Positions 9,984 through 64,000 of a stretch of DNA of 64,000 nucleotides are shown here, one piece after another (position 1 is the first letter of the stretch; each line of letters begins with the position of its first letter). The notes under the pieces were generated by a model. The model was not told the DNA's origin and made no database searches. It saw only the letters and a list, made by a program, of their open reading frames with translations. The stretch is from NCBI GenBank assembly GCA_003194525.1, contig NBIV01000150.1, forward strand, positions 120,678 to 184,677, in the 5' to 3' direction. Both the position numbers and the translations under genes were made by a program. The stretch is from Gracilariopsis chorda (Eukaryota; Rhodophyta; Florideophyceae; Gracilariales; Gracilariaceae).

Positions 9984-10104
9984 GTCCGGTCCACGCTTCA
10001 GCGTGTGGAGCTCTTAGACCATCGCTGACAAGCAAGAGCAAAACAGCAAAAAGGTATTTTGCTGCCATTTGTATCTCCCACGGTTGTGAAGCAGGAGCAA
10101 AATT

Positions 10105-10169
10105 TTGAACAGGTTCACATTTCCGAACCAAATCAGGACGATTTGGTTCGGAAATGCAAACCTGTTCAA
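10105..10169. repeat. Subterminal hairpin of Harbinger copy 1
   Basis: A 65-base inverted repeat: outer arms TTGAACAGGTT/AACCTGTTCAA (11 bp) and inner arms of 16 bp (ATTTCCGAACCAAATC and its complement), separated by a small internal loop, with a 5-base apex. The same hairpin lies at the equivalent place in copy 3 (40523-40587). Confidence 0.85.
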
Positions 10170-10257
10170 ATGACTGATACCAAAGCAGTATCCAAGTACC
10201 GGGCTCTGAAGGGCTCAATAGCCAACTTCTGGCCCCAGAAAAGCGAAACAGGGTACA

Positions 10258-25458: not shown

Positions 25459-26933
25459 GAGCATCTCCAACGGGAACGACAAACCGGGAGCAAACAAGCA
25501 AAACGTGGCAAACGTGGTGAGCAATGAATGGCTGTGAGAGTTTTGGTTATTTGCTGATTTGCTCCCCTTTCGTTCCAACTCCAACGCCAAGACTGTACCA
25601 TGTCTTCAGACATCTTCAACTTTGAGCTTGACGAGAACCTTGATGAGCTGTTACAAGACATCCTGACGAGCTCAGATAGCGACAAAAACATACGCTATCA
25701 CGATGGGTCTACTGCCAACCGCAGTCACAATATTGAACGTCAACGAGAGCGCGGCTTCGACCGTTTACATTGCGACTATCTGTGCAATAATGCAGTTTAT
25801 CATGAGGATCATTTTTGCAGACTTCTCAGAGCTTTTTAAATGAGTTTCCAGCTTATTGTGTGTCAGACTTTAACAAAAATATCAGTAATTGACCTCTTAA
25901 AAAAGACTGTACAGAAAACCTCATTTTCAGAATAGAACAAAAAGTTAAAGCTGCGATACGACTTCGTGCGTACATAAACGTATATGGAAGCGTCGATTAG
26001 TACATTTGCATGGGTTCCTCAACCGCTGCGGACTGCTTGAAACGATTTTGCGGAAGTGTTGTAGAACAACTTAAACCGGAGTACCTAAGATGCCCAGATG
26101 AAGCAGATATGAAAGGTGTATTGCCTAAAAACCAAACATTGGGCTTATCTGGTATGTTTGGTAGTACTCACTGCTCTCAATGAATCTGAAAAAACTGTCA
26201 TGTTGCTTGGAGAGGACAGTACCAAGGAAAGGAGAAAAGACCTGGTCCGACGTTAGAGGTAATTGCGGATGATAACCTCTACATTTGTCATGCTTTTTTG
26301 AGCACGCTCTGCAGTTCGAACGACCGTAACGCTTTCAAAACGACTGCGCTGTTAAACAAGATTGCCGATGAATCATTCCCACCCAAGATAACCTATGTGT
26401 TAAACGAAAAGGAACGAGACGTACCATAGTTTTTTTGTGACGGTGTTCACCCAAAGTATCCAATACTTGCTCACACTGTGCAACACCCTATCACGAAAAA
26501 AGAAAAGAACCTTGCATCTTATCATAAAGGGAGATGCAAAGAAAGATGTAGAACGTGCTTCCGGTGTGATTAAGGCTTGATGGCACATATTGCGAAGGCC
26601 ATCAAGGTTTTCGCACGCCAACAGCATGCACGACGTCATGTATTTCTGTATTATCTTGCAACATATGATTATTCAAGAGAGTGTGAGTGCAGAAGAAGAA
26701 AAATGGACAACAGAAGTGGCACCGTTGTGAGACAGAGATGTGGTCCACATCGAACAACCAGTTTGGACAAAAGAGGCAAACAATGAAGTTTGGCCGGGCT
26801 CTATCGCTGCGCTCTGCGAGGGACAAGAGTTTCTTCATAACAAGTTCAAACAAGCATGTCTAGAAAAGGACTTGATGGATCATTTATGGTCTTATAACGG
26901 ATCCGTCTAACCTATCGATCTTATTGAAGGATG
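25459..26933. mobile_element. PIF/Harbinger copy 2, left part
   Basis: It begins GAGCATCTCCAACGGGAACG after TTA at 25456-25458, matching the inverted end of copy 1. It carries the transposase gene on plus. At 26934 it is cut by Gypsy-1 and resumes at 33642 for about 45-55 bp, then homology stops, so the Myb-like half and the second end are missing. Orientation is opposite to copy 1. Confidence 0.85.
25600..26910 (+). pseudogene. Harbinger DDE transposase, copy 2
   Basis: From the ATG at 25600 the first 80 residues read as an acidic N-terminus (FELDENLDELLQDILTSSD) followed by RQRERGFDRLHCDYLCNNAV, the hallmark start of ALP1-like/plant transposon protein transposases. The frame then breaks near 25839. 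In later frames a C-terminal ERASGVIKA-like and WHILRRPSRF-like segment appears (26540-26640). The gene ends at TAA 26908-26910, and Gypsy-1 sits 23 bp further on. It would cut and rejoin DNA at TTA targets if intact. Confidence 0.78.
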
Positions 26934-27996
26934 TGTCGGTCGCTAATGTTGCGGAATGTGCCAGAAATTGCTGGAACACACGTGTAGAATGTTCCAGTAG
27001 TGTCTAGCACATTGCACGCTTTGTTGGCCCAGCAAAGACTACAGTATTTTAGTGATGCTGGCGCAAATTGTCGCTTTATTATTGGTTAGTGTGCAGCTCC
27101 TGAGGTCTCTAGAAGCCAATGGAGTAACCTAGACGCACACATGAGTAACTAGCAAGTAGAAATGCGTATTTGGCTCGTTTGTAGTGCCTCTAAACATTAT
27201 AAAAAGAGGTTCTGAGCTTCGGACTTCGGTCTGAACTCACCTCAACAATCGACCAACATCTAAGCCCCACCCCCTATCAACCTTCAGCCACTTCAACTAT
27301 CATCAACAACCAGTGAGGCGTTCGCCACTAGATAAAGGGCTTCTAGTGAGGCGTGTGCCGCTAGTTGTCCAATAGGGTGGGGAAGTACCGTCGCTAAGAC
27401 CGGTTGAAGCGCCTTAGGCGTGGACGGGAGACGGGTAGTGTGTACCAAAGGGGTTTCTGTCGTCTGTGAGCCCCACCGGAGCTTTGCTCTGATAACGGTG
27501 TCGGTCGAAAGACCTGGTGATTTCCGGACGGAAGTACTTGACGGGAAGCTATCCGCAGGCGACGTGCCGTGCAACCTTTCCTGCAAAGGGCCAGCTTGGG
27601 TATAGAGTGAAAGCATATCCCGCTGTTAGTAGCTCTCCTCGGGAAGCCCTGTAAGGATTGTATGCGCCTGCTTCTGGTTAGTGCAGAGGTAGGTAGGCTG
27701 CAGAATCCACTTCACATCCGGAGTGTCTGACCGGAAGCCGAGGGTCTGACCCTTAGTGATCCTTGACATAATTCTTGGGTTGCGCGCCGTTTCAACAAAG
27801 AAGTTAAGAAGTTTTATTTGGGTAGTGAGCCTCTTGCTCTCCCTAGTGTTGTTTTATTTCATCGAGTGGGTTTAGTTCTTTTGATCCCACTGTTTCCAAC
27901 TTGTTTTGGGGCTTTTAGCTACGAAGAGCACCCTTTTGGCTTTTATTATTACAACTTTTTGGCCCCCTGCGTCACCGTCCCGTGATGGCGCCCACA
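26934..27996 (+). repeat. 5' LTR of Gypsy-1
   Basis: 1063 bp. A TATAAAAAG promoter box lies at 27198-27206. The final 12 bases ATGGCGCCCACA supply the gag start codon. Short open frames inside the LTR on both strands recur in every LTR copy and are not taken as genes. Confidence 0.96.
27198..27206 (+). promoter_or_regulatory. TATA box in Gypsy-1 5' LTR
   Basis: TATAAAAAG, duplicated at 32843-32851 in the 3' LTR. It marks the likely U3/R promoter that drives the genomic RNA; a copy in the 3' LTR could read outward into the Sec24-like remnant. Confidence 0.6.
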
Positions 27997-30900
27997 TGGT
28001 ACTCTCGAGGAGGGAGCTCTTCTGACTCTAACGCTGCATTTAATTCTTATGACGGTTCTTCTATTGACGTCGTAAAGTTCTTCTTTTACTTTGAGAATGT
28101 TGCGATGAGAGGAAGGACTGACGAGGACATGGCACTTGAGTTGCTTGGTTCCCTTGAGAACATAGCCTTTGAGTTCTACGAAGAAGCAAAGGACTACCGC
28201 TCCGTTAAGCAAGCTTTCATCGATCGTTTTGGAAAAGCCGAGGAGTCTGAGGAAGATATACGCCTTGCAATTTCTGCTAAATTGGATTATCCAGACTTGG
28301 TTCGTTCCTTGACCTATATGGACAACCTCTTCTTAAAGGCAGGATTCAACGCTAAGGCTAAGTTTGGTCTTTTGAAGAAAGCTGTAATGGAATACGCTGA
28401 TCTAGCCCAGTTCGTTGTTTTCCGTGGTGCTGATGATTATGATGAGTTGAAGGTTCAAGTGAAAGCCTTCGATGCTGCCCGGAAAGCAATGGGGAACTAC
28501 GTTTCATTAAGTACCCCACCTAAGCGTATTGTCCAAAACCACAGGTCTTCTGAAGAAAATATCTCTCATGCTTTGGAGTCTAAGGTCGACAAACTCTCTG
28601 AGCAGTTTGCTCAGCTGTCATTAATGGTTAAGAAGACACAGACGGAGCGTCGAGACTACGAAAAGGTTTGTTCATACTGCAAGAATCCCGGACATTATGC
28701 CTCACAATGTGACTCTAATCCGCACCGAGATACGCGATGCCCGCGTTGTGGGAAAATTGGACACTCAGAGATCACTTGTTGGCGAAGAATCCGACCCGAA
28801 GAGACCCGCAAAGAATGGGATGCCAATGAGGAATCTAAAGAGTTAGCATCTAATCTTCAGAAAGGATCTGACTCCGTATCAATTGTCACCGAAAACGCCG
28901 GGAATGCTGATGTAGTCTCCACAACCAAGAGAAGTGCTGACGGTGAAGCGTTGCCCAAACAGCGCAGTTCAGACGGTGGTGCACCCATCCCGCTTTTGCT
29001 CAATCCAACAAGATACGAAGAGAGAGTTCGGAGACCTAAGGTTCATGAACAGAAAATCAAGAAGCCGAAACAGAGGAAGTCGAAGAAGCAGAGTCTTCAA
29101 GACCATGCAAGCAAATATAACGTTCTCACTGAGCTTGCGAATGCCTCTTCCGGACTAACCTTTGGACAACTTATTAGAGGAGACGCAGATGATGCGAAGA
29201 AAGACATTCGTAAGCTCATCGGTCGCAAAAGCAATGTTCGACGCCCTTTTGTTGGGCCAGTCGGTAAGCAGCCTAGAAGTCTTAAGGCGGTCCCCGTTAT
29301 GATATATGGGACTGAGACTGAAGCTTTGCTCGACTCTGGAGCTGTTCCAAACCTTATGTCAACCAAGCTGTGTGACAGGCTAGCACTGGAACCCAAGCAT
29401 ACGACGAAGAAGATAACTGTTGCCAATGGACAGAGCGCCGTATGCAGAGGAATACTATACGATATCCCTATATCCTTCAGGGACGTCTCCGTTCCATTAG
29501 ACTTTCTTGTTATTGATGGTCCACCATTCGACATCATTGTGGGTTGTCCAACACTTGAATCGTTACAAGCCTGCCTTGACCTCGGAAATCAGCACGTGAA
29601 GATGAATATTGATGGAAAAAGAGTAACACTTGGCTTTGACTATGCTCGCGTCGAGATTTCAGACGAAGAGGGTTTCCAGACGGATAGCGACGACTTCACT
29701 TCAGATTCTGACGCCGCTATTGACTGTGATACTGCTTCTGAAAATGACGAACAACTCGTGGTTGCTCTAACAGAAAAGAGCCATGGCGAGACTCCCGAAA
29801 TGATCCCGCAATTGGACATCACTACCGATGAGCAGCACGAGAAGTTACTCTTTTCAAAACTCTCGCACATTTCAGAGGATGAAAGAGACGACTTGGTTTC
29901 TTGTCTGAAGGACTCGAATGTAATCGCTTGGTCATTGAAAGACTTACGCCCAGCCGATGTGCCTGTTTCTCACTCTTTCAAGTTGACCGTTGACAAACCA
30001 ATCTACTTCAGAGCCAGGAGGATGTCTCCCAAGCACAACGAGTTCGTACGCAAGGAGATTGATCTTCTTCTCGAAGCTGGTATCATTACCCCTTCAGCCT
30101 CTGCTTGGTCGTTTCCAATTTTCATTGCCTCGAAGAAAGATGGAAGCGCAAGGTTTTGTGTCGATTACAGAGAGCTGAACAGAGTCATGAAAGCTGACCG
30201 CTGGCCTTTGCCACGCATGGAAGAGATCTTTGACGAACTTGGAGGTTACTGTGTCTTCACTACGCTCGACCTGTTCTCTGGATACTGCCAAGTCAAGATT
30301 TCTGAGGATTGCAATGAGATGACGACCTTTGTGTGCAGATACGGAACTTTCATGTTCGAAGTCATGCCATTTGGTCTCATGAATGCCCCTTCCACCTTTC
30401 AACGGATGATGGATCATGTGCTAAGAGGACTTCCATTCGTTCGGGTTTACATTGGTGACGTTGTCATATTCTCAAGAAGCCTCAGAGAGCACGTGATTCA
30501 CTTGAAGGCTGTGATTGGTCGGATTGCGAAGCATGGATTGAAGCTCAAACTGTCCAAATGTTTCTTTGCACTATCGGAGGTGTCTCTTCTAGGCCATGTA
30601 ATCAACGGAGATGGAGTGCACGTGGACCAGGAGAAGATTGCTAAGATCCAGGATGCCCCAATTCCTGCCACCACTACGGAACTACGATCTTTTCTGGGAC
30701 TAGCCGGATACTATCGAAAGTTCATCAGAAACTTTGCTGAGACCTCCGCCGTGCTTCACAGTGCTACCTCCGGGAATAAGAAGCTGCGTTGGACCGGAGA
30801 GATGCTAGAAGCTTTCCACGGTCTGAAGAAAAAGATGACTGAGCCTCCGGTACTTTCATTTCCAAACTTCGAGCAGCCTTTCATTGTGGAAACGGACGCC

Positions 30901-32534
30901 TCTAGTGTTTCAATCGGCGCAGTTCTCTCTCAGAAAAAGGAAGATGGGAAGATACATCCTCTGCAGTTTGCCAGTCGTACTATGACCGCTGCGGAAAAGA
31001 ACTACTCTGCATGTGAAAGAGAAGCATTGGCAGTTATCTTTGCTCTCAAGAAGTTCAGGTTGTATCTACTCTCGTCTGTTCCATTCAAGGTAATCACGGA
31101 CCATATGGCTTTACGATATGCATTTCAGAAGCGCAATATACATGGACGCTTAGCTCGCTGGCTAGACTTTCTGGCCGAGTATGACTTTGAAATAGTGTAT
31201 CGTGCAGGCAAGGAGAATGGCGCAGCAGATTATCTGTCAAGGATAGTTCACGGAGACGAGGTCTAGCCGTTAGAAGATGAAGGCGACCTTGCTTGTATGG
31301 CTATTGAGCCTGACGACCTCTCCGGTCTTGAACCATACTACGCAAACATTGCGCGCTTCTTGTGTGGTCTGCCTACAGATGAGACTGATGCACGTCTCCG
31401 CCAAGCAATCCGACGAAATGCGAAGAAATTCCTGGTCTGGGAAGGAAAATTGTTCAGAAGGATGCCAAACGCACTGCGAGTTGTTCTTGTTATTGGTTGG
31501 CGACAGATCATTATCAAGTCATTTCATGATGAGATTGGACACTGGGATTTGAAGACTACAAGGAAGTTCATCACTGAGAGATACTGGTGGCCCACTATGC
31601 ATGAAGATATCGGCAACTACGTCAAGAGTTGTGACGAATCCCAGAGACTCGCACCACTACCAAGTATTACAGCAAACTTCGGACTCCCATTTCCTCTCTC
31701 TTTGACATCTTCTCGATTGATTTTGCAGGTCCTCTTCCGACTACCGAATCCGGAAACCGTTTCATTCAGGTTTGTGTTGAGCATTTGACTGGTTGGCCAC
31801 TTGCCGTAGCGACAAAATGGTCTACGTCACAGGAGGTCATAGACTTCGTGAGAAAAGAGATCATTGCCGTGTTTGGTTTCCCTCGTATCGTGGTGTCGGA
31901 CAATGCTACATGCTTCACTTCTAAGTCGCTCGTCTCATTCATGGAGTACCATGGTATCAAATGGAAAACAGTCTTGGCGTACGCCCCCATGTCCAATGGC
32001 CGAGCTGAAAGGATGGTTGGTACTCTGAAAAGAGCAATAGGAAAGAAAGCTCTGGATAATCGTTAAAGTTGGGACGAACACCTGCCTTCGGTTCTGTACG
32101 GATACCGGCGCAGACATCTTGCCAGTGGGATCTCTCCGTTCGAGTTGCTTTACGGCGTGAAACCACGTATGACCTCCGATGAAGGTGGTGTCGTGGCACG
32201 AGTTGGGAACTCCTCCGACCGGTTCCGCTCAGTGGAGCTGCTCGCATCAAGGAATAATAGAGCTAAACGTTCTGCTCAGAGGCCTTTGAAGGAAGTCGAT
32301 GCAGTCTCCATTACGAAGTTTGAAGTCGGTGATCTGGTCCTTGTGGCTCGTGGAAAGGCCCTGAACACTACGGTGAAATGGCCTGCTTTTTCCTCTAAGT
32401 ACTTTGGTCCATGTCGTGTGGTGAGGGCTCACCATCCAAGGTACACGTTGGTTTCTCCACACAACCGGTACACTCGCCATGGAATACACGCCCGTCGTTT
32501 GAAGAAGTATATTGCGCGCCCGATGGAAGGTTAG
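27985..32534 (+). pseudogene. Gypsy-1 Gag-Pol polyprotein (PR, RT, RNase H, IN)
   Basis: A 1093-residue frame from ATG 27985 holds Gag, two CCHC knuckles (about 28668-28785), a protease with LLDSGAVPNLMS, RT with FCVDYRELN and MPFGLMNAPSTFQ, and RNase H with VETDASS and CEREALAV. The RT catalytic box at 30448-30459 reads YIGD, not YxDD, so one catalytic Asp is lost. A TAG follows at 31264-31266 between RNase H and integrase. Integrase then runs in the same frame (zinc domain with the last Cys replaced by Ser), shifts frame near 31700, resumes with SIDFAGPL, VVSDNATCF and MSNGRAERMV, and meets a TAA at 32064-32066. There is no chromodomain. Confidence 0.93.
27997..28013 (+). promoter_or_regulatory. 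Putative primer-binding site of Gypsy-1, inside gag
   Basis: TGGTACTCTCGAGGAGG begins exactly after the LTR and starts with the TGG expected to pair with a tRNA CCA end. The gag frame (ATG in the LTR) reads straight through it. Confidence 0.6.
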
Positions 32535-32578
32535 GTTTTCAGGTTGCCCCGGCGTGGCCACCCTTGAGGTTGGGGTTG

Positions 32579-33641
32579 TGTTGGTCGCTAATGTTGCGGA
32601 ATGTGCCAGACATTGCTGGAACACACGTGTAGAATGTTCCAGTAGTGTCTAGCACATTGCACGCTTTGTTGGCCCAGCAAAGACTACAGTATTTTAGTGA
32701 TGCTGGCGCAAATTGTCGCTTTATTATTGGTTAGTGTGCAGCTCCTGAGGTCTCTAGAAGCCAATGGAGTAACCTAGACGCACACATAAGTAACTAGCAA
32801 GTAGAAATGCGTATTTGGCTCGTTTGTAGTGCCTCTAAACATTATAAAAAGAGGTTCTGAGCTTCGTACTTCGGTCTGAACTCACCTCAACAATCGACCA
32901 ACATCTAAGCCCCACCCCCTATCAACCTTCAGCCACTTCAACTATCATCAACAACCAGTGAGGCGTTCGCCACTAGATAAAGGGCTTCTAGTGAGGCGTG
33001 TGCCGCTAGTTGTCCAATAGGGTGGGGAAGTACCGTCGCTAAGACCGGTTGAAGCGCCTTAGGCGTGGACGGGAGACGGGTAGTGTGTACCAAAGGTGTT
33101 TCTGTCGTCTGTGAGCCCCACCGGAGCTTTGCTCTGATAACGGTGTCGGTCGAAAGACCTGGTGATTTCCGGACGGAAGTACTTGACGGGAAGCTATCCG
33201 CAGGCGACGTGCCGTGCAACCTTTCCTGCAAAGGGCCAGCTTGGGTATAGAGTGAAAGCATATCCCGCTGTTAGTAGCTCTCCTCGGGAAGCCCTGTAAG
33301 GATTGTATGCGCCTGCTTCTGGTTAGTGCAGAGGTAGGTAGGCTGCAGAATCCACTTCACATCCGGAGTGTCTGACCGGAAGCCGAGGGTCTGACCCTTA
33401 GTGATCCTTGACATAATTCTTGGGTTGCGCGCCGTTTCAACAAAGAAGTTAAGAAGTTTTATTTGGGTAGTGAGCCTCTTGCTCTCCCTAGTGTTGTTTT
33501 ATTTCATCGAGTGGGTTTAGTTCTTTTGATCCCACTGTTTCCAACTTGTTTTGGGGCTTTTAGCTACGAAGAGCACCCTTTTGGCTTTTATTATTACAAC
33601 TTTTTGGCCCCCTGCGTCACCGTCCCGTGATGGCGCCCACA
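32579..33641 (+). repeat. 3' LTR of Gypsy-1
   Basis: 1063 bp, near-identical to the 5' LTR. A G-rich tract (GAGGTTGGGG) directly in front may be the polypurine primer. Confidence 0.96.
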
Positions 33642-33690: not shown

Positions 33691-34248
33691 TTCAAGCGCT
33701 TTGACCTCAATTGTCACGCCATGTCGAACAAGCCGCATTCTTCGCAGCTTTCCAGCGGCTCTGCCTTAGCTGATACCAGACAGATTCCAGAGACAAAAAT
33801 TCCTGTCTCTCCAGTTCATTCTTTTCTCAGTCGCTTTCCTGGTCGACGTATTTTGAGCCCCAGCCCACTGATACCTGCCACTTCAAGCACACCACATAAA
33901 ACAACCAACTCCAAGGCTAATACCAATGCTCCCCAGCAAGTTCCAGCAGATGAAGTTACATCAGCAGGTGGTTTAATACATCTAGATCAGGAAAATAATC
34001 TAGATCCAGACCTTACACCTCAAACTTCATCAAGTCCACCACATCAAAATGAAGATGAAATCACCCCGAATAGAACCAACCAAACTTCTGCCGAAGATAA
34101 ACTAACCCCCGTCAAAAAACCCAAGCAAAGTTGCAGATGAAGCAGAGGGCAAACTGATCCAAGTCAAACCAGACACTGACCCCTTGCTCTTCGAAGGTCG
34201 TCCGAGTCATCCAATTCTTCACTTCTCCGCAGGAAGCGCCTTGATCGA

Positions 34249-35875
34249 TGAAGTGCAATGCCCTCAGAGAGGGATTCTTGGTACTTGCTTGATTTCCCGA
34301 ATGTTTCCGTAATGTAGTCATTGCATGAACTACGACCACTAATAGTGGATTTCACACATGGGACACGGAAGAGTCAGTTGGTGGTTGGCCACAGTAGTGG
34401 GCATGAACAACCAATGTGGAGTAATTTATTTAATTCTATTTATTAGTTTTACACCCATCTCTGGTATGGTTGGTACTTTGTGCGCCGGCGGGTTGCCGTC
34501 GCACCAGTAAACCTTCCCAAACAAGGGACCCCAACCTGGGGAATTGGCTCTAGACCTCACCGCCTTTGCGTGTTCTGAAGTGCAACGCCCTCAGGGAGGG
34601 ATTCCTGGTACTTGATCGTTTTCCCGATATTATCGGTTGTGTAGTGTGTGTATGAACTACGCCCCACAATGGTGGGTATGGACACGTGGGACACGGTTTT
34701 GGGTCAATTGGCGGTTGGCCACAGTAGTGGATGTTGCCACGAAATGTGGAGTATTTCAGTTAATATTATTTATTATTTTCACACCCATTTCTGGGAAGCT
34801 AGTACTTAGTGCGACGGCGCACTTCCGTCGCACCAGTAAACCTTCCCCAACAAGGGACCCCAACCTGGGGAATTGGCTCTTGTTGTTGCCACTTGCGCGC
34901 GTACTCTACTCCTCCTTGGAGGGAAACGCCGTAAACCACGGGACATCTAACCCCCTTGCACATGTAAATAAGCCCATCCTTGGGAGTATAATTGTTCCAA
35001 TCATATTGGTGTTTCGCCCTGTATAGGGAGTCCTGTCCATCGGCATTGCCGTATCTGTTCGTCGCTCTCGCGACTCACTTCCTCCTTCCTTCCTCCTCTT
35101 CGCCCTTCCTTTTTCCCCTTTTTAGGGTAGTGCCTCCCGCTATCCGCGGCCCTCGTGTGTGCATCCGCTCACACACCCCCACTTACGTGGAAACATACCT
35201 CTACTGAGGATCACACCCCGCTCACGCGGATACCGATTCTTCGCCTTCACCTCCCTGCGCGAGTCGCGACAGGTGTCCCTGGTCTTACAAACTTGCTTCG
35301 CCGTGACACCTCTGGGAGGGCTCTACCCAACTGGGTTCACCTCGTGAGAGGAAGATCCCGAACGTCTTTCGGTGTTTTTCCCTTTGGGGCATTGCACCAC
35401 ATGTTCTCTACTCCTCTTTGGAGGGAAGCACCGTCGTATAAGGGAAGTCTAATCCCCTTGCCTATGTAAAGGACGCGAGTATTCGGATTGTTATTCGAGC
35501 TGTCTTGGTGTTCGCCTCGTATAAGGTTTATTTACCGGCACTGCCGTTAGTCTTCGTCACGACACTCGTGACTCAGCTCCCCCTTATTTTTCCCTTTGTA
35601 GGGTGGGTTTCCCGCTACCCACGGCTCGTGTTCGCGCGTGCCACTAACGTGGAAACCTCACCTCTCTAGAGGACGAGCACCCCCATACACCGCTCCTGCG
35701 GATACCCGATTCTTGCCTCAACCTCCATGCGTAAGTCGCGACGGGTGGCCTCGGCCTTACAACCCGACATAGTCGTGCCACTTCTGGGAGGGCTCTACCC
35801 AACTAGGCTCAACTCTAACGAGGAAAGGTCCCGAACGTCTTTCGGTGCGCTCCCGCTTCCGGGCATTGCACTACA
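34249..35875 (+). repeat. Solo LTR A of the hairpin-rich gypsy family, split by LTR B
   Basis: It starts TGAAGTGCAATGCCC and ends TTGCACTACA. The two parts (34249-34575 and 35407-35875) sum to about 796 bp. The flanks ATCGA (34244-34248) and ATTGA (35876-35880) are a duplication with one mismatch. It lies in the Sec24-like coding region. Confidence 0.85.
34576..35401 (+). repeat. Solo LTR B nested in LTR A
   Basis: 826 bp, starting TGAAGTGCAACGCCC and ending TTGCACCACA, with perfect TGTTC duplications at 34571-34575 and 35402-35406. It is closely similar to LTR F at 57829-58653 in inverse orientation. It is younger than LTR A by nesting. Confidence 0.9.
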
Positions 35876-36006
35876 ATTGATCACAACGCCCCTGAAACAA
35901 CAGCACGTTTCTCCATCGCAAACCGTCAGACGCCACTCTGCGTCCTTTTCTAACCTCAACACGTTCACTTCCAACAAATGCAGGTTCTACCATTTGGCTT
36001 TGTATG

Positions 36007-36898
36007 TGAAGTGCAACCCTCTTGAGGGAGGTTTCCATGGACTTGGTGTTTTTGCCGCTTTCGCGTGTTTATGATTATTACCGCCATTAGCGGGTGTCTC
36101 AGCCCTCAGCGCATCCGCACTGTGCACCAGGTGCACACCTGTGCATACGCCGTGTGCCACCCAAGGCGTGAGTGGAAAACGTGTGACACGGATCGTCAGG
36201 AGGAGGTTGTCACCGCAGTGTGGACATTTTTTAAATTTATATTTATTATTTATTATTTATCTACGCTAGAGTAGGGAGATTACTACACTATATAGTGGCT
36301 CGGCGACCTCGCCCTGACACTGAGTAAACTTCCCCAACCAGGGGTTCTTGGCTCTAAGTCTTTTCCGCTTTCGCGAGTCTTCTACATTACTCGGAGGTAA
36401 AGCCGCGTTTCTAACGGTAGACCTATCCACCCTGCGTCACCAGGAGTATCACCGCCTTGGGCGTTTGTCACTTAATTCACCACCGCCGTGTTCTCACCCC
36501 TGTATAGGGTTCCTTTGTACCTTTTTTCGTGGCCCGGTTGGCCCTTACCCCCGTCCTCCCCCATCGGGCATCCCCCGTATTTCCCTTAGCCCACTCTCGT
36601 GGTTTCTACCCCTTTGTGTGGTTGCTCGTCACCGCTGACGCGTGTCTCTCGTGCCGGTATCCCGTGAAGTCTTCCCCCACTTACGTGGACTCGTACTCCT
36701 TGAAAGGGCTGTTTTCCCATTCGTGGTGATCCTAATCCTACCGTTTCAACTCTCCCCGCTTGGCGTGAGGGTGAGCCTCGGCTTTACAACCCGACTTCGT
36801 CGTGCTCATCCGGAGAGGCTCCGTTCGCTTTGTTACCCTCCAGAGGGGAAGATCCGAACGTCTTCGTGTGTTGTCCCGCTTGCAGGTATTGCACTACA
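36007..36898 (+). repeat. Solo LTR D, diverged member of the same family
   Basis: 892 bp, starting TGAAGTGCAACCCTC and ending TTGCACTACA. The flanks are GTATG (36002-36006) and GTAAG (36899-36903). It lies between the Sec24-like middle piece and the zinc-finger part, and its removal joins the frame on both sides. Confidence 0.88.
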
Positions 36899-40390: not shown

Positions 40391-40522
40391 GGTGGAACGA
40401 GAAAGAGTACTGGAACATGTTCAGGTTCAATCGATGTACTCTGTTTCACTTTTCTGGCGCAAGAAGTTGGCTATTGAGCCATTCAGAGCCCGGCACTTGG
40501 ATACTTCTTTGGTATCAGTCAC

Positions 40523-40587
40523 TTGAACAGGTTCGCATTTCCGAACCAAATCGTCCTGATTTGGTTCGGAAATATGAACCTGTTCAA
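40523..40587. repeat. Subterminal hairpin of Harbinger copy 3
   Basis: Same 65-base hairpin as 10105-10169, inverted: TTGAACAGGTTC outer arm and ATTTCCGAACCAAATC inner arm with complements. Stem bases are nearly all conserved; the differences fall in the apex and internal loop. Confidence 0.85.
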
Positions 40588-40678
40588 AATTTTGCTCCTG
40601 TCTCACAACCCTTTGATATACAAATGGCAGCAAAATACTTTTTTGCTGTTTTGCTCTTGCCCGTTGGAGATGCTCTTA

Positions 40679-51733: not shown

Positions 51734-52800
51734 TGTCTGTCGCGAAATTGGTAGAATATTCCGGCACTGCTGGAACACACGTGTAGAGTGCTCCAGCAGT
51801 CTCTGAAGCATTGTAAGCTTCGCTGGTCCAGCATTACCACTGTATTTTGGTGATGCAGTCGCCAGTTGCTAAAGTACTATTGGTTAGTGTGCAGCTCCAG
51901 AGGCTTCTGGAAGCCAATGGGGTAACCTAGACGAACACATGAGTAAGTAGAAAGTAGTAATGCGTTTCTGTGTTGTTTTGCATGCTTTTTGTCTCTATAA
52001 GAGGGCGAGTTGAGTCCCGAACTTCGGTCTGGACTCATCTCAAGGAGAACCACATCTCAAAGTCCTCACCCCCGCAACTATCTCAACTATTACTATCAAC
52101 CATCAACTCTCAACCGCACTTAGTGAGGCGCTTGCCGCTTTGTGCATACTTGGGGTGGGGCATTACCGTCGCTGAGACCGTTTGAAGCGCCCTTGGCGTA
52201 AACGGGAGACGGGTAGTGTGTACCAAAGGAGCTTATGTCGTCTGTGAGCCCCCACCGGAGCTTTGCTCGGATAACGGTGACGGTCGAAAGACCTGGTTGT
52301 TTCTGGACGGAGGTGCTTGACGGGAAGCTGTCCGCAGGCGACGTTCCGTGCAACCTCTCCTGCAAAGGGCCAGATTGGGTATAGAGTGAAAACATATCCC
52401 GCTGTTAGTAGCTCTCCTTTGGAAGCCCTGTAAGGATTGTACGCACCTGCTTCTGGTTGGTGCAGAAGCAGGTAGGCTGCAGAAATCACTTCATGTCCGG
52501 AGTGTCTTACCGGAAGCCGGGGGTCTGACTCCTAGTGACCCTTGAAATAATTCTTGGGTTGTGCGCCCTTTCAAGAAGTTTCAAAAACTTTCTTTTTGGA
52601 TTGAGCCTTGTGCTCTCCTTTTGTATTTTTTGTTATCGTTGCAGGTTGAGTCCTTTTGGTCCCTGCATTGGTTGTTCGTTTGATCTTTTATTCGTGTCAT
52701 TTCATCTTTTTGGGGCTTCGAGCTACGAGGAATACCCTTTTTAGGCTAATTTTTCATCTATTTTGGCCCCCTGCGTCACCGTCTCGTGATGGCGCCCACA
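51734..52800 (+). repeat. Solo LTR of the Gypsy-1 family
   Basis: 1067 bp, starting TGTCTGTCGC and ending ATGGCGCCCACA like the Gypsy-1 LTRs, with perfect AATAT duplications at 51729-51733 and 52801-52805. It is clearly more diverged from the Gypsy-1 LTRs than they are from each other, so it comes from an older insertion that lost its interior by LTR-LTR recombination. Confidence 0.93.
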
Positions 52801-56470: not shown

Positions 56471-57351
56471 GTACATTTCTGTTATTAGCATCATTAGCAT
56501 TTGTCGGCCGTACCTGTGCGCTGTTTTTCTTGTTTATGACACAAGAACAGTTTCTGCTTCAGAAAAAGGCAGAGTTTTGGAGGGAGCGGTTATGCTGGTC
56601 ATGACTTTTGGGTTTAATAAGCGCTCGGCGCACAAATGCTGTTTAGAGGGGCCAGCAAACACAAATTTTTATCTGCTATACGAACGTTAAGAGGTTCTTA
56701 GAGGAACGCAAAAGCTCGCAAGCGAGGTAGAGAGTGTCGTAAGGGGTGAATACAGTCGGTAAGAAGTTGGACAGAGAGGATGCTGCAACTTAGCAAGAGG
56801 GTGGCGTATTCTCGATGTGGAACTTGCAACTGTCTCTCTAAAGGGAAAATATTTTTTTTTTGAGATCGCTCCAATGAGATGAAAAGGAACCTAGGAGCCA
56901 AAAACTGCGGTGAAATTGGCCCTACTTTGCTCTTCTTATGATCACTATCCTAGTCGCAAGGTCTCTGAAACTCTAAAACCGAAAACAAGTAAGGATAACT
57001 ATACTGATCATTGAAAGCATTAAAGATATCTTATCGCAACATTAGCAAACCAAGAACCTAACCGAAATATCACAACCATTGTTTTACTGTAAAAAGGAAC
57101 AGGTGACATGTAATCAGCATCGACTGCGTATGAATTGATTTGGGGCAACGCGAAAGGCGTGGTTACCACGATGATGCTACTCACAGGAGTGTGACGTGGT
57201 TACCGTGATTGTACTACCGTATATGAGTTGGACCTGTACGAGGTTATGCCAGTGGGATGATTTACTGTGTGAAGTTTCACCTAGGAAGGTAGGAATCTAG
57301 AATGGATTGCAGGATGAGCGGGCGCGTGTGCGCGCGTTCCACAGCACCATG
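56471..57351. other. Spacer, nothing recognised
   Basis: No convincing frame. Hairpin-like words such as CGTGGTTACCACG begin near 57172, foreshadowing the hairpin-rich LTR region to the right. Confidence 0.4.
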
Positions 57352-57828
57352 CTGAAGTGTTAAGTTTTACTTGGTTTGACCCCTCAGGGTTCCTGAAACT
57401 GGCCTGGCCGTGTGTGTGGACCTGAGGAGGTTTGCAATATTGTAGTTAATTATTATAGTTTATTTGGTAGTGTACTTCCTCAGTTGAACGCGACCTCGTC
57501 ATCGCGAGCACTAAGTAAAGCTAACCCGAGACTTTGGTAGTTCACAGCTGTTCAGTTTGACCTGAGGTATCCAACTCTGGATTGTGACGTCGTTGCGCCG
57601 TGTGCTAGTCCTCGCGGAGGGTCACCGCATTCGGTTCGCTCAATTCAACCGCTCGGTACGCATACAGATACTTTGTGCTATAATTTTCGTGTGACATTTA
57701 TCTACCGTGTGGTGCTGGTATCGCCCTTTTACTGGGTACTTTGTCCGCTACATCCCGTGAATTTGCACCCTCTGTCGGGTCTGGTTCCGCTTTCTGCAGG
57801 ACTAGCCGGGTGGTTTTTCTCCGTTATC
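57352..57828 (+). repeat. LTR-like fragment, diverged relative of LTRs A-D
   Basis: It begins TGAAGTGTTAAG and shows the same landmarks in order as LTR B: an AT-rich TTATTATAGTTTATTT block, then a hairpin-bearing CGCGACCTCG...CGCGAG stretch and AAGTAAAGC. It is cut at 57828 by LTR F. The boundary to the left is uncertain. Confidence 0.5.
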
Positions 57829-58653
57829 TGTGGTGCAATGCCCCAAAGGGGAAAAACACCGAAAGACGTTCGGGATCTTCCTCTCACGAGGTGAACCCAG
57901 TTGGGTAGAGCCCTCCCAGAGGTGTCACGGCGAAGCCGGTTTGTAAGACCAGGGACACCTGTCGCGACTCGCGCAGGGAGGTGAAGGCGAAGAATCGGTA
58001 TCCGCGTGAGCGGGGTGTGATCCTCAGTAGAGGTATGTTTCCACGTAAGTGGGGGTGTGTGAGCGGATGCGCACACGAGGGTCGCGGATAGCGGGAGGTG
58101 CTACCCTAAAAAGGGGAAAAAAGAAGGGCGAAGAGGAGAAAAAGAGGGCGAAGTGAGTCGCGAGAGCTACGAACGGATACGGCGATGCCGGTAACAATAT
58201 CCCTATACAGGGCGAAACACCAATGCAATTGGAACAATTATACTCCCAGTGATGGGTCCCTTTAGATGTGCAAGGGGGTTAGATGTCCCGTGGTTTACCG
58301 CGTTTCCCTCCAAGGAGGAGTAGAGCACGCGCGCAAGCGGCAACAACTAGAGCCAATTCCCCAGGTTGGGGTCCCTTGTTGGGGAAGGTTTACTGGTGCG
58401 ACGGCAGTGCGCCGTCGCACTAAGTACTAGCTTCCCAGAAATGGGTGTGAAAATAATAAATAATATTAGCTAAAATACCCCACATTTCGTGGCAACATCC
58501 ACTACTGTGGCCAACCGCCAATTGACCCAAAACCGTGTCCCACGTGTCCATATCCACCATATTGGGGCGTAATTCATATACACACTACACAACCGATAAT
58601 ATCGGGAAAGCGTTCAAGTACCAAGAATCCCTCCCTGAGGGCGTTGCAGTACA
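57829..58653 (-). repeat. Solo LTR F (inverse orientation, close relative of LTR B)
   Basis: 825 bp, in its own orientation starting TGTACTGCAACGCCC and ending TTGCACCACA. It matches LTR B almost throughout. The flanking four bases TATC (57825-57828 and 58654-58657) look like its target duplication. Confidence 0.85.
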
Positions 58654-58909
58654 TATCCCCCCCCTAAGACGGGAAAACGACCGCGGACGCGGAGGGTTCC
58701 CAGACGAAAATGGGTGATAAAAGCGCGTACGCCGTCTCCGGTTCTTCTTTCCTGGCATAGCCGGCTATTGTAGTATAGTGTTGTGGGGAGCTAGATGCTC
58801 CCTTGAATAAACTTTCCCGTTTAGAACGGTGCTTCTCGGTTGAGTTCCCCGTCTTCGACGGACCTTGCCTTGTTATCCTTTCCTTTCGCTCTCCGCTCGC
58901 GCGGCAACG

Positions 58910-60808
58910 TTACCCAACTTGGGCATTAACCAGCGTGGCTGGGGCTGCAGTCCCCGTTTGACGGTGGTATCGCAGGACCTGCGACCGTGGGAGGTGTTCG
59001 ATTGGCTCCCACGTATCCCCACTGGGGTCATACCCGTACCAGCGGACGCAGTATTGTAGAATACCATCCTGGTCCCAGGTGTGTCTGACAAGTCGGTCTA
59101 CTACGAGCTCTCGTTCGTAGACCTGCCGGCCGTGCCGGGTGGTGGCTGTAATCCCTGGCGAGGGTTGCCCGCGGTGCGGTGTAATGTCCCTTAGCAGGGT
59201 GTTCGGCGATAACTCCGACGTTGCCGTGCGCTGTCCTAGTGGCCGCTGCTCATGCGGGAAAATATCCCTCAAGAGGGTGTGTGGTGTCACGGTTTTCACC
59301 GGCAAGTCGTTCCCCAGAGGGGTGTCGTTGTTCCCGTCTTCACGGTAGGCCGGGCGAACCGCCAGTCGGCGGGGGACTTGGGCTCCGCCTTCGTGGTTGA
59401 GCTCACGAACCGCGAGTTTGCGGGAAGATGACCGCTCCTGCGGAATCGGCATTTCCACAATCCCCTGGGGGGTCCCGTGCGACACGGTGATTGGTTGGCA
59501 AATCGCCTCCCTGCCAGGCGCACGAGCGCTCTGCACCATACGTTCCGGCGATGCCGTGGTGTCCCCGGCTACTGACGGGTTGCCTGGGGCTAACTCCGGT
59601 ATACCGGTATTTTGGTCAACATTCCCCTTTGGGGGGTGCCGGGCAGGTGCCGATGACACCCTTTTCAGAGGAATTGCCGCTAAGCGCGGTGCACCATCTC
59701 CATGAGGAGGAGCAGCGTCCGGTACGACCGGTTTCGAGAGTGCGATGGCGCGCGTTTTTCCCGAGTTCCTCGGTTCTTCGCCGCAGCGTTGCGGGGGTTG
59801 GCGCAAATTATTCCCCGTAGCGAGGGCTTCGATTCCGTCAACGACGGGAGGCGTTTCCGGTGCTTGCGAGCCAGGGCTTAAAGCTTCGACTGCGGCTTGG
59901 CTGCCTTTTTCCCCAAGAGGGGTGTGGGTATTTCCCTGTGAGGCCGGCGTATCTGGGCGCCCCTTCTCCGCAAGGCGCGGGTCTGATCGACCTGATTGAA
60001 CCGCTTCCGTGGGGACTTCCGCCAACGGCGGCTTCGAGGCATCGCCCTGCTCAGGGGATTGGGGGCAATCGTCACCATACTCCCTTATCGGGGATCCTTC
60101 CCTGACAGGGGTGTGCGGTAGTTGCGCTTCAACTTCCCGTGTAGCACGGTATGTTTTCCGCGTTTGTGGCGATGCCTCCGGGGATGGATCGGGCGATTGC
60201 CTTTCCGCTGCTGCGGTATTGGAGTGAGGCTTCTCGTTTTCCCGTGACAAACGGTGTATTTGCCGCTTTTGCGGGGCCTGCGCGTGTGGTTCCTGTTGCA
60301 CAGCACTGCCCGGGAACGGGGGATTAGTGTCGCGTGACATACTCCGTGCTCCACGGTCAGTGTTCCGTATGTTACGGTGTGTTTCCCGTTGCGACGGCGA
60401 TATCGTTCCTCGAAAACGAGTGTTCTCCTCCCCCTCCTTAGACGGAGCGGCGGTATAAGGGATAACAATCCCCACCTGGAGGGTATAGATGCGCACCAGG
60501 GGGGCAGACGTGGTAGGGGCGGGCGCTGAGGGGCCCGAATTACCCGGCTGAGCCGGTGAGTCCGACAGAGTCGGTAGGTCTGAGAGTCCCCGGCTGGGGT
60601 CTGGTAGTACCGTAGGTCTAGTACTCCCGGATGGTTCCGGTGTTGCAGAGTCCGTAGAAACGGGGTTGCCTGGATCCAGGACTACCTCTGACGAGGGAGG
60701 ACCGGCAAGGACAACACGATCACGGGAAATCCGTTCGTGCGTGTCGCCCATCTCTACCATGACAGTGTCGGTGTTAACAGAGATGACCTTGAAGGTTCCA
60801 TCCGCCAC
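58910..60808 (-). pseudogene. Chromo-1 integrase tail, long spacer and chromodomain
   Basis: Same gene as the Pol entry, shifted by one base at the G run 60888-60893 (six G on plus). In this frame the integrase C-terminus continues with YVFITKEYYNPEREKRH and ADGTFKVISVNTDTVMVEMG. About 540 residues of Pro/Ser/Thr/Arg-rich low-complexity sequence follow, with recurring phrases such as PHTLLRDIFPH and SPNTLLRDITPH. A chromodomain ends the protein: ERELVVDRLVRHTWDQDG, then CVRWYGYDPSGDTWEPIEHL, with three aromatic-position residues for methyl-lysine reading. The stop is TAA 58910-58912. The domain would target integration to marked chromatin. Confidence 0.85.
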
Positions 60809-63573
60809 AGGCGAGAGTTTGTGACGCTTCTCCCGTTCTGGGTTGTAGTACTCCTTCGTGATGAAGACGTAGTTATTTGCCCGAATCGGGGGGTCTTTCC
60901 TCGCAAGCGAGCGTCAAAATTCCGCTTGTAAGCGGCTTGGGCCCGTGCCATAGACTTCCGCGCAGCGGGGACCAGCTTGGAAATCCATTGCTTCCATTGC
61001 TGCCGGTAGATACCCACAGATGGGAAATTGTCCAAGGTAGCTTGGGGTTCCAGCGCCACAGGCGGGGGTGTTCTAGATAGAACCAACTCGAATGGCGAAA
61101 CTCCGGTAGTCCGGTGTACCTGCGTATTGTACGCGTAGGTTACCGCATCAGCGTAGAGATCCCAATTAGTTGGGTGGTCAGCGACGTAGGAACGTAACGC
61201 CGCGAGTAACGTCCGGTTAAACCGTTCAACTTGCCCATTACACTGGGGGTGGTAGGTAGTCGTGAACAAGTTCTTGACATCCAGGATGCGACAAACATCC
61301 TGGAAGAACTTGCTCACGAACTGTTTCCCGTTATCGGAGAGCACCTCCACAGGGGGACCGTAGACAAAAATCCAGTGCGTCACCAGAGCCTGGGCCACCG
61401 TGAGAGCGGTTATCCTCCGAAAAGGGACAGTCCGTACCAGCTTAGAAAAGCGGTCGGTGATGACAAGTAGAAACTTGTTTCCACGTTTGGTGGTGAGTAG
61501 TGGTCCGAGGAGATCAATTGCGATAAACTCGAGTGGCGCCCTTGCGGGGAATAGTTTCATCTTCTTCGCATTTTTGCGGAGTTTGACGCGATTCTTCGCG
61601 CATTCGCTACAAAACCGCACAGTTGCGTAGCAATCCACCGCCATTGCGGGCCAATAGAAATCCCTTCGCAGGGTTAGGTAGAGTTTCCTCCCACCTGGGT
61701 GACCTCCAATGGGGGCGTAGTGTGATAGATGTAACACCCGCGATTGCAGGGAATGTGGTACCACAATCTGTGGGCGGGCTTCGACCTTTCTTACGAGGTA
61801 GCCTTTGTCGCTTACCCCGAAAGGGAGATCTTCACCACCGTTGATACGGGCACGAATTCTCGTACAGAATGGGTCGCCGAATTGTTCTCGGATCATTTCT
61901 TCCGGTGATACCGGTACAAAGTTTCCCGGTAACGGGTTCTCAGATTTATCTCGCGATGCGAGTAGTTCGTCAAAGTCAGCATCCTCGTCCCAGTTTTCTG
62001 GCCCAGCCTCGACGGCACATTCCGGATCATCCGGGTCTATAGCCATGAAGCATGGGACTTCATCATCCTCCGTTGGGAGTGCTTCCCCACTTGTGGGTAA
62101 CCGCGACAAAGCGTCGGCCTGGGTGTTCTGCGCGCCCTTTTTATAAATGACTTGAAAGTCATATTCCGCGAGGCGGAGTCTCCAGCGCATGAGGCGTCCC
62201 GACGGGTCGGAGATATTCATCAACCACCTCAATGAGGAATGATCCGTGTACACGGTGAAGTGAATTCCCATAAGGTAGGGGCGCAGAGTGGTCATCGCCC
62301 ATACGACGGCGAGGCACTTTTTCTCCGATACGGAGTAGTTCCGCTCATGAACATTGAGCGAACGTGACCAATAACCAATTGGATGTCGTTCCCCCTGGGG
62401 GGTGGTTTGAAAAAGAGCACACCCGACTTGGTAGTCGCTCGAGTCCGTATCTACGGAGTATGGAAACCCAAGTTTTGGGAGATTTAGGATTGGTGCTGAT
62501 GTGACAGCCTCCTTTAAGGAGTTAAAAGCTTCCGATTGCTCGGGCGTAAATGTTCCCAGTTTTGGGGGGTTCCCCTTTCGCAACAACGCGTTCAGGGGCG
62601 CTGCCGTATCCGAAAAGTTCGGGATAAACCGTCGATAGACGTTGACCAGCCCCAGAAAGGAGCGCAGTTCCGTTTGAGTACGGGGTTCTTTCGCCTCAAC
62701 GAGGGATTTGACTCGAGCTTTCTCGATCGCTAACCGTCCAGGACGGATAATGTGACCCAGATACTTCACAGTATATGTGAAAAACTCGCATTTCCTCAAC
62801 TTGAGGGTAATTCCCGCATCGCGGAGTACGGTCAGCACGTCTCGGACGTGAGTGAGATGGTCGTCCAATGAGTTGGAGAAGATGATAATATCATCAAGGT
62901 AGACCAGACAACTCCGCCACTTAAAGCGGTTGAGTAGAATATCTACTGCACGCTGAAAGGTGGCGGGGGCTTTGGTTAACCCAAATGGCATCCGCTTGAA
63001 GCTGTACGTTCCTGCATGGCAGGTGAATGCGGTTTTGTCGCGATCCTCCTGTCTGACAGGTACTTGCCAATATCCCCAATTGGCATCAAGGGCCGTGAAC
63101 ACGGTGGCGTCTCCAAGGGAGTCAATGCACGCGTCCATACGAGGGATGGGGTACGTGTCCCTAACAGTCACGGCGTTGAGCCGGCGGTAGTCGACACAGA
63201 ACCTCCAGTTTCCGTCGGCCTTTAAAGCCAGTACAACTGGGGATGCCGAGGGTGATTGAGCGGGCTCAATCACACCTGCGCGGAGCATCTTGTCCACCTG
63301 GGACTGCTCCTCTTCCCGAGCTTTCGGACCTGCCCTGTAAGGGGGTTGTGCAACCGGTCGCGCACCGGGGATTAAATCGATCCGGTGTTCCGTTGCATCA
63401 ATCTCGCCAAGCGAGCCATCCCACATTGTGGTGAATTCCCGTAACATAGTACGGAGATTGTCGCGGTGCGACTCTGGCACGTGGCTGAAGTACAGCGCTT
63501 CAAGTGCTTTATCCGGATCAATCCGGTCATTGCTCGATGGAGCATTGTCCTGTGGAACAGGTGTGGTTCGCAA
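60754..63573 (-). pseudogene. Chromo-1 Pol: RT, RNase H, integrase
   Basis: 939 codons are open. RT shows FCVDYRRLNAVT, FTALDANWGYWQV, MPFGLTKAPATFQ and an intact YLDD box (plus coordinates 62890-62901). RNase H has VDTDSSDYQVG and YTDHSSLRW. Integrase has the zinc domain (HLSHYAPIGGHPGGRK, then CSECAKNR) and the core IDLLGPL, LSDNGKQF and NGQVERFNR. All catalytic residues are present. The frame is lost at the G run 60888-60893 and the true C-terminus continues in the next frame. The N-terminal join to the protease-side frame near 63590 is also out of phase. Otherwise it is well preserved. Confidence 0.9.
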
Positions 63574-64000
63574 TTCCTAGTTACTCGGTATGTTCGACGC
63601 TGAAGTAGCGGTTTCCTCCCCTCCTTAGACTTGACGTCTTCGGACGGCGGGGCGAACTCCTCAGAAGAGGTGGTAGCTCCGAGTACATCGGCGGCTGTCA
63701 TCTTCGTTGGCAGCATTCCCATAGGATGGGGGGTTACACTCCCAATTACTTGGTGTTTGACCAGATACTGGGGGTGTTTGCCAAGGTTGGCAACCAATAT
63801 CCGGAAAGGAACATCCGGGGAAATGGAGACAATTCCATTAGCCAGCGCCAGCTGGGATTTCTCGTACAACGAGGCGAGGGGTTGTATAACCCGAAGACCG
63901 TGTTGACGGAATTTACCTGCACCCAGACTTGGGACTCAGCCGGTATAGAAACCGAGGCAGCGACGCGGAGCTTGGTGGACTCGCGGGACGCGGGCGGTGG
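63372..64000 (-). pseudogene. Chromo-1 region upstream of RT, partial
   Basis: The frame with GIVSISPDVPFRILVANLGK and YLVKHQVIGSV is the segment normally between protease and RT in chromoviruses. It is open from about 63869 and shifts into the RT frame near 63590, beside a TAG. Sequence beyond 63870 is partly in another frame. The protease DTG motif is not inside the window. Confidence 0.7.

What the first reader, a model, noticed from the sequence alone, without database searches (positions are those of the whole stretch)
57829..64000. Chromodomain retroelement and its LTR family are studded with short perfect hairpins, in coding sequence too
Seen: perfect 4-6 bp stems with 1-5 nt loops recur about every 20-35 bp. 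Examples in coding sequence: 58913-58923, 58930-58942, 58971-58983 (6 bp stem), 59068-59079, 59126-59138, and CCGTCCAGGACGG near 62730. In about 360 bp from 58913 I count six stems of 5 bp or more, where about two are expected by chance. The same texture fills LTRs A, B, D and F (for example 34858-34870, 34911-34922, 34997-35009, 35017-35028, 35061-35074). Gypsy-1 and the host genes do not show it by eye. Stems inside conserved RT and integrase codons imply selection or a generating process that uses synonymous freedom. Possibilities: a structured genomic RNA, protection from silencing, or spread of mini-palindromes.
Basis: partly seen in the sequence, partly recalled or inferred. Interest (0 to 1): 0.86.

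Follow-up and report, generated by a model that had tools for sequence, protein, structure and literature searches.

The report
Retroelement studded with conserved mini-hairpins
A group of mobile elements in a red-alga genome is filled with tiny hairpins of one fixed design, written into its genes and its ends alike and kept by natural selection; what reads them is still unknown.

Summary
In the element and its LTR relatives, stems of 5 bp or more run 2.3 to 6 times above dinucleotide shuffles; pol holds 52 against 11.4 in codon-preserving shuffles. The excess resolves into one module: 5'-CC, 2-3 free Watson-Crick pairs, a 3-4 nt loop, GG-3', 12-14 nt, with a mismatch just outside (5 of 145 paired there, 32.1 by permutation). 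Of 128 strict units in the window, 119 lie in the element and LTR cluster. The mirror type, GG..CC, is hardly enriched and not conserved.

Between copies about 80% identical, stems differ at 0.05-0.07 per site, loops 0.27-0.28, other sites 0.19. Compensatory changes occur but are few. I read this as purifying selection rather than a generating process. Three families about 65% identical carry the module, mostly at different places; the other gypsy-type elements tested do not.

G-U is tolerated no better than other mismatches and both strands fold alike, which disfavours ordinary structured RNA. Best guess: dispersed binding sites for an element-encoded protein, perhaps Gag, on single-stranded cDNA or genomic RNA.

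The parts
57829..64000 (-). Family F1 gypsy-type element, cut by the end of contig C150; 90 strict CC..GG hairpin units
   Evidence: pair just outside CC/GG is Watson-Crick in 2 of 90
57829..58654 (-). 3' LTR of the element
   Evidence: 94% to 34581-35401
58910..60913 (-). 3' ORF with chromodomain; 30 stems against 10.5 in codon shuffles
60754..63576 (-). pol frame: RT, RNase H, integrase; 52 stems against 11.4 in codon shuffles
62734..62746 (.).
59126..59138 (.). Example unit CCGGC-CGT-GCCGG (5-3-5)
58930..58942 (.). Example unit CCAGC-GTG-GCTGG (5-3-5)
34248..34576 (+). LTR fragment A, 78-80% to F1 LTRs
34576..35401 (+). LTR B, 94% to the element's LTR, same units
35403..35875 (+). LTR D, of a subfamily 73-74% like F1 LTRs
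36400..36750 (+). Stretch with 3 units, hardly alignable to F1 LTRs (46-52%)
26929..33641 (+). Gypsy-1, negative control: 0 CC-terminal units, 2.4 expected

Best explanation
The element carries a dense array of short hairpin recognition modules under purifying selection. SHOWN from sequence: each module is 5'-CC, 2-3 Watson-Crick pairs, a 3-4 nt loop and GG-3', 12-14 nt long, with a mismatch just outside CC/GG and rarely less than 6 nt to the next module; one full copy holds 159 strict ones over LTRs, gag, pol and 3' region; stems are conserved and loops are free; three families keep the density but mostly move the positions. INFERRED: the modules are read, folded from a single strand, by a nucleic-acid-binding protein of the element itself, most simply Gag, which has one CCHC knuckle. 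They would act like dispersed packaging or coating sites on the genomic RNA or, because wobble pairs are not favoured, rather on single-stranded cDNA, and so help to select, compact or protect the element's own nucleic acid.
For: Strict units 145 against 6.5 (F1) and 72 against 4.0 (F2) expected; pair just outside Watson-Crick in 5 of 145 (permuted 32.1) and 3 of 72 (19.3), 0 of 500 permutations as low. Codon-preserving control, CC..GG hairpins: F1 gag 49 against 4.5, F1 pol 103 against 13.2, F2 gag 31 against 4.0, F2 pol 52 against 5.7. Divergence L059 to L083: stems 63/869, loops 100/353, other 979/5214 (p 1e-19); reverse 36/736, 81/303, 1036/5423; third codon positions stem .156 and .060, other .338 and .352. 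Composition control: CC/GG outside units differ at 200/1328, inside 22/385; GG..CC stems 6/26. Shared variants break hairpins in 17 of 189 (37.0 expected), singletons in 89 of 436 (86.3 expected), p 3e-4. Exclusion around units: 2 gaps under 6 nt, about 18 expected. Motif geometry differs by family, CC one step in for F3, which fits an element-encoded reader. CCHC knuckle in all three Gags.
Against: No binding partner is shown. F3 alone gives no sign of purifying selection within the family: shared variants break 6 of 43 (6.2 expected) and are commoner in stems (.0201) than outside (.0123). In the F2 copy L061 the stretch after pol (7501-9500) is at background. Non-CC hairpins with an A or T in the outer two pairs are also somewhat conserved (.108 and .118), so the motif is not absolute. 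A few compensated pairs only. Units turn over: 63 of 96 comparable F1 units unchanged in L083, and few are shared between families.
Confidence: 0.4

Rival explanations
1. The hairpins are selected as RNA: binding sites for Gag or another protein on the sense genomic RNA, that is, classical dispersed packaging signals whose reader demands a regular Watson-Crick stem.
For: Dispersed packaging signals are an established model in RNA viruses (PMC6281560, passages). Gag has a CCHC knuckle. The units run through all of the transcribed element.
Against: G-U is no better tolerated than A-C or other mismatches, inside or just outside the stem (4 against 5.2, 7 against 7.4). Transitions are not clearly enriched among stem changes (66 Ts, 51 Tv; other sites 753, 658). 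Sense and antisense fold about alike.
Confidence: 0.27
2. A generating process, such as fold-back template switching in reverse transcription or mismatch correction of quasi-palindromes, keeps making and repairing perfect mini-palindromes; no function is needed.
For: Watson-Crick only and strand-symmetric, as templated DNA synthesis would leave it. Turnover between families. F3 shared variants gain hairpins more often than expected (7 against 1.6).
Against: It does not predict avoidance of the pair just outside, the CC..GG over GG..CC preference or the spacing exclusion. Singletons gain hairpins at the random rate (16 against 14.6 over four sets). Repair from either arm should leave compensated pairs about as often as restored ones: I estimate by hand some 52 'missing' changes and hence about 26 compensated pairs; 9 were seen.
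Confidence: 0.1
3. The dyads serve the host chromosome: non-B DNA favoured in centromeric or heterochromatic chromatin where these elements sit.
For: Centromeres of several organisms are enriched in short dyads that may form cruciforms (PMC8997354, passages). The element has a chromodomain. An LTR-derived tandem array exists at C40.
Against: The module has fixed ends, length and a forbidden outside pair, not just dyad symmetry. Other gypsy-type elements of the genome lack it. The listed copies lie on many contigs, but no centromere map exists to test.
Confidence: 0.08
4. Pairing hides CC (and GG) in single-stranded cDNA or RNA from a host defence enzyme such as a deaminase or nuclease.
For: What is conserved is the pairing of CC with GG, while loops evolve fast.
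Against: CC and GG outside units are common (1328 such sites compared). Fixed length and forbidden outside pair are not explained. Loop changes show no strong C-to-T or G-to-A excess. Gypsy-1 does without.
Confidence: 0.05

Closest known systems
Ty3/gypsy chromodomain retrotransposons (chromoviruses)
   Same: Domains and layout: LTRs, Gag with CCHC knuckle, RT-RNase H-integrase, chromodomain in F1
   Different: The genome-wide hairpin array; Gypsy-1 and loci L080-L082 in the same genome lack it
Dispersed packaging signals of RNA viruses (PMC6281560, passages)
   Same: Many dispersed stem-loops with a shared recognition motif, in coding sequence too
   Different: Here one exact geometry, Watson-Crick only, the motif at the stem base rather than in the loop, and about 16 strict units per kb; no binding shown
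Bacteriophage N4 vRNAP promoter hairpins (PMC4496689, passages)
   Different: Three promoters, not an array; contacts in loop and stem; a polymerase reads them
Short dyads at centromeres (PMC8997354, passages)
   Same: Short dyad symmetries thought to form hairpins or cruciforms
   Different: No fixed end motif or forbidden outside pair in the passages read; centromere role not testable here
Genome-scale ordered RNA structure (recalled; only a search listing seen)
   Same: Structure spread over a whole genome through synonymous choice
   Different: Here strand-symmetric, without wobble pairs, made of one small module

Membership tests
Ty3/gypsy chromovirus | RT, RNase H, integrase in that order | tested here: met
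   Pfam hits on pol
Ty3/gypsy chromovirus | Chromodomain behind integrase | tested here: met
   F1: 37.2 bits, cut-off 25.1, and 34.8. F3 only 20.9 bits, below cut-off; none reported in the F2 pol frame
Ty3/gypsy chromovirus | Long terminal repeats | tested here: met
   L059: two 793-bp stretches 99.7% identical
Ty3/gypsy chromovirus | tRNA primer site and polypurine tract | not tested
   not looked for
Dispersed packaging signals | Many dispersed stem-loops sharing a motif | tested here: met
   159 strict units in one copy
Dispersed packaging signals | Structure conserved in evolution | tested here: met
   Stems against loops and other sites; density kept but positions mostly moved between families
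Dispersed packaging signals | RNA-type pairing, wobble tolerated | tested here: not met
Dispersed packaging signals | Coat protein binds the units | not testable with these tools
   needs binding assays
Centromeric short dyads | Short dyad symmetries in excess | tested here: met
Centromeric short dyads | Location at centromeres | not testable with these tools
   no chromatin map
Genome-scale ordered RNA structure | Sense strand folds clearly better than its complement | tested here: not met
   mean z per 120 nt: F1 -1.31 and -1.06, F2 -0.91 and -0.85, F3 -0.38 and -0.36
Mobile mini-palindromes (copies of one unit) | Units are copies of one another | tested here: not met
   inner stem and loop bases vary from unit to unit

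The most novel reading that the evidence does not exclude
A retroelement lineage has a genome-wide DNA hairpin code: about 160 exact CC..GG mini-hairpins per copy that fold in single-stranded cDNA and are read by an element-encoded protein with family-specific geometry, imposed on LTRs and proteins alike through synonymous choice, so that the whole element is a cis-acting recognition surface.
Probability: 0.35. Interest if true: 0.95.

Novelty: categorically new. Interest (0 to 1): 0.88.

Why it matters
If right, a second code runs through nearly every part of a recently active retroelement and limits which codons its proteins may use. It offers a natural system to ask how a genome marks its own nucleic acid for packaging, protection or copying. 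The strict rules (ends, length, forbidden outside pair, free loop) make predictions that simple binding assays can test, and the family-specific offset of CC offers a way to find the protein that reads it.

Tried and rejected
A-rich flanks on the sense strand looked like evidence for RNA; with codon-preserving shuffles chance CC..GG hairpins in F1 pol show the same bias (0.74 and 0.74) and in F1 gag nearly so (0.66 and 0.61), so this was dropped. An excess of A-C over G-U at the outer pairs in dinucleotide controls dissolved into ordinary flank composition when split by pair type with a codon control. Periodic spacing: none (eleven periods, R at most 0.049; flat pair distances). DNA of relatives outside this genome: two IMG/VR scans gave none. 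Positional conservation between families as the sole test was too strict, as they share only about 65% of bases. Host naming stopped at red alga: best named hits Chondrus crispus, 56%, and Agarophyton chilense, 55% over 66% of pol. A drop in shared variants within F3 was looked for and not found; F3 stays in the totals. The names used for two host genes (tryptophan dioxygenase, PDH E2) are by eye and recalled. The submit step failed once, because the fields were garbled, before this version.
Full report
Where it is. Host proteins resemble those of red algae: a WD-repeat protein is 56% identical to one of Chondrus crispus, the best named hit; pol is 55% identical over 66% of its length to a protein of Agarophyton chilense. 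The element at 57829-64000 (minus strand) has RT, RNase H, integrase and a chromodomain and is cut by the contig end. A search with 1 kb of pol scored 40 places of 1153 candidates, all 98% identical or more. A fuller copy, L059, has two 793-bp LTR stretches 99.7% identical, a 724-aa Gag with one CCHC knuckle and no Pfam hit, and a 1853-aa frame with pol and chromodomain. In the window's copy the pol and chromodomain parts lie in two frames.

The observation. The ten quoted stems with coordinates are present, and the eleventh lies at 62734. Stems of at least 5 bp with loops 1-5 exceed dinucleotide shuffles in all seven 1-kb bins from 57001 to 64000 (z 3.7 to 15.2) and in the three bins 34001-37000 (z 2.5 to 3.6); the other 54 bins lie between -1.9 and 2.7. 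Against codon-preserving shuffles pol has 52 against 11.4 and the 3' frame 30 against 10.5; Gypsy-1 and three host genes have no excess. In full copies of F1 (L059) and F3 (L060, L062) nearly every 500-bp bin is above expectation; in the F2 copy L061 the first bin and the bins from 7501 on (2, 2, 4, 2 against about 2) are near background.

What the unit is. Tables of maximal stems show the excess in 4-5 bp stems with 3-5 nt loops. The pair that would leave a loop of 1 or 2 is at chance (21 of 86, 26 of 99): complementarity runs down to the smallest loop that a single strand can make. By outer dinucleotide, CC-starting stems are 9.0-fold (F1) and 8.6-fold (F2) above codon shuffles, CT 3.5 and 2.3, GG 1.7 and 1.3. 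Strict units (CC..GG, 12-14 nt, all inner pairs Watson-Crick; overlaps allowed) number 145 against 6.5 in F1 and 72 against 4.0 in F2. The pair just outside is Watson-Crick in 5 of 145 (32.1 by permutation) and 3 of 72 (19.3). The next pair out is mildly reduced in F1 (24 against 36.9) and not in F2 (19 against 18.9). G-T just outside is not avoided (4 against 5.2; 7 against 7.4); A-C there is 27 against 36.4 and 8 against 9.3. Units with one inner non-Watson-Crick pair: F1 G-U 11 against 6.4, A-C 14 against 8.0, others 46 against 31.7; F2 7 against 4.6, 14 against 4.1, 50 against 18.5; with codon control F1 9 against 7.3, 13 against 10.6, 41 against 32.2; F2 7 against 4.5, 13 against 5.6, 41 against 17.9. 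So G-U is treated no better than a mismatch. Non-overlapping strict units in the window: 128, of which 90 in the element and 29 in the LTR cluster; the pair just outside is Watson-Crick in 2 of 90 and 0 of 29. The 159 strict units of L059 leave 2 gaps under 6 nt where about 18 are expected, and no period is seen.

Who has it. The RVT_1 search scored 150 of 3380 candidates and 30 loci were fetched. With L001-L008 (L001 is the window's own copy) these are 38 RT loci in three families by identity: F1 8, F2 7, F3 23. All 38 have CC-terminal units at more than three times expectation. Pol is about 71% identical in residues between F1 and the others, and DNA 64-67%. In F3 CC lies mostly one step inside the stem: 78 such units, outside pair 11 against 19.6 by permutation, 6 of 500 as low. 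Three other gypsy-type loci, L080-L082, 31-34% identical in pol, have 0, 0 and 0 CC-terminal units where fewer than 1 is expected in each, and no excess of stems in general; Gypsy-1 has 0 against 2.4. Two older F1-related copies, L083 and L084, have 115 against 6.7 and 103 against 5.1.

Selection. If a hairpin present in one copy were neutral, its sites should diverge like others. Between L059 and L083, in stretches at least 65% identical, stems differ at 63 of 869 sites, loops at 100 of 353, flanks at 34 of 187 and the rest at 979 of 5214; in the reverse direction stems 36 of 736, loops 81 of 303, rest 1036 of 5423. At third codon positions stems differ at .156 and .060, loops .453 and .430, the rest .338 and .352. 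Loops exceed the rest also at first and second positions, so hairpins may sit in the more variable codons. By outer bases: CC stems .071 and .048, stems with A or T in the outer two pairs .108 and .118, other GC .183 and .117, GG 6 of 26 and 4 of 16. CC or GG outside units: 200 of 1328 and 186 of 1373, against 22 of 385 and 6 of 327 within units. Of 127 units in L059, 63 are unchanged in L083, 4 kept by compensation, 29 broken and 31 not comparable; doubly changed pairs are Watson-Crick in 9 of 18, against 11 of 49 in slid controls. Among LTR variants 75-76% alike, three compensated pairs and several loop swaps can be read, such as CCCTGTATAGGG / CCTTGTATAAGG, along with several broken units.

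Within families. Shared variants break hairpins in 17 of 189 cases (37.0 expected), singletons in 89 of 436 (86.3 expected), p 3e-4. The depletion comes from F1 (pol 5 of 64, 12.8 expected; LTR 6 of 77, 16.9 expected). F2 has 0 of 5 (1.1 expected). F3 shows none: 6 of 43 (6.2 expected), with 7 gains (1.6 expected), and shared variants per site are commoner in its stems (.0201) than outside (.0123). Compensated pairs within families are rare: one clean case in 621 F1 pairs. Between families hairpin centres coincide in 16 of 99 (3.5 by chance), 16 of 99 (3.4) and 14 of 85 (2.9): more than chance, but most have moved.

DNA or RNA. Mean folding z per 120 nt is -1.31 and -1.06 for sense and antisense of F1, and closer still for F2 and F3. 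Wobble pairs are not favoured in any test, and the transition share in stems (66 of 117) is near that of other sites (753 of 1411). A palindromic unit carries no strand information of its own. The simplest reading is a DNA hairpin, for which single-stranded cDNA is the obvious stage; a protein that demands a regular RNA stem remains possible. This step is inference.

Literature. Nine full-text searches of the held library. Listings were seen for each, and passages of PMC4496689, PMC6281560 and PMC8997354. None of what I saw describes such an array in a retroelement. Subscription papers are mostly not in that library.

Verdict. Confirmed, sharpened and extended: a selected, rule-bound hairpin array in one clade of gypsy elements of a red alga. 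That the hairpins are kept by selection I hold at about 0.9; the mechanism, protein-read sites, at about 0.4.

Noticed in passing
L046; G000 C40:302896-312839: Tandem array with a period of 1184 bp made of an LTR 76% like the F1 LTR plus about 384 bp; the units repeat with it.
   Followed up: partly
window 36400-36750: A stretch only 46-52% alike to F1 and related LTRs holds CCCTGTATAGGG and CCACTTACGTGG, both identical in letters to units of the F1 LTR, the first not in the aligned column.
   Followed up: no
window 10016-11375 and 39315-40676: Two inverted copies of a 1.36-kb repeat, 90% identical, with a coding-like frame; each is flanked by a 66-bp near-palindrome at 10105-10170 and 40523-40588.
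   Followed up: no
window 26929-27996, 32574-33641, 51734-52800: Gypsy-1 has 1068-bp repeats 99.4% identical at its ends, and a third copy 76% alike lies at 51.7-52.8 kb.
   Followed up: no
L059 against L083 and L084: Hairpin loops diverge faster (.27-.28) than other sites (.19), also at first and second codon positions; whether this is relaxed constraint or raised mutation was not settled.
   Followed up: partly
L061:7501-9500: In the F2 copy the stretch between pol and the 3' repeat has no hairpin excess, unlike F1 and F3.
   Followed up: no
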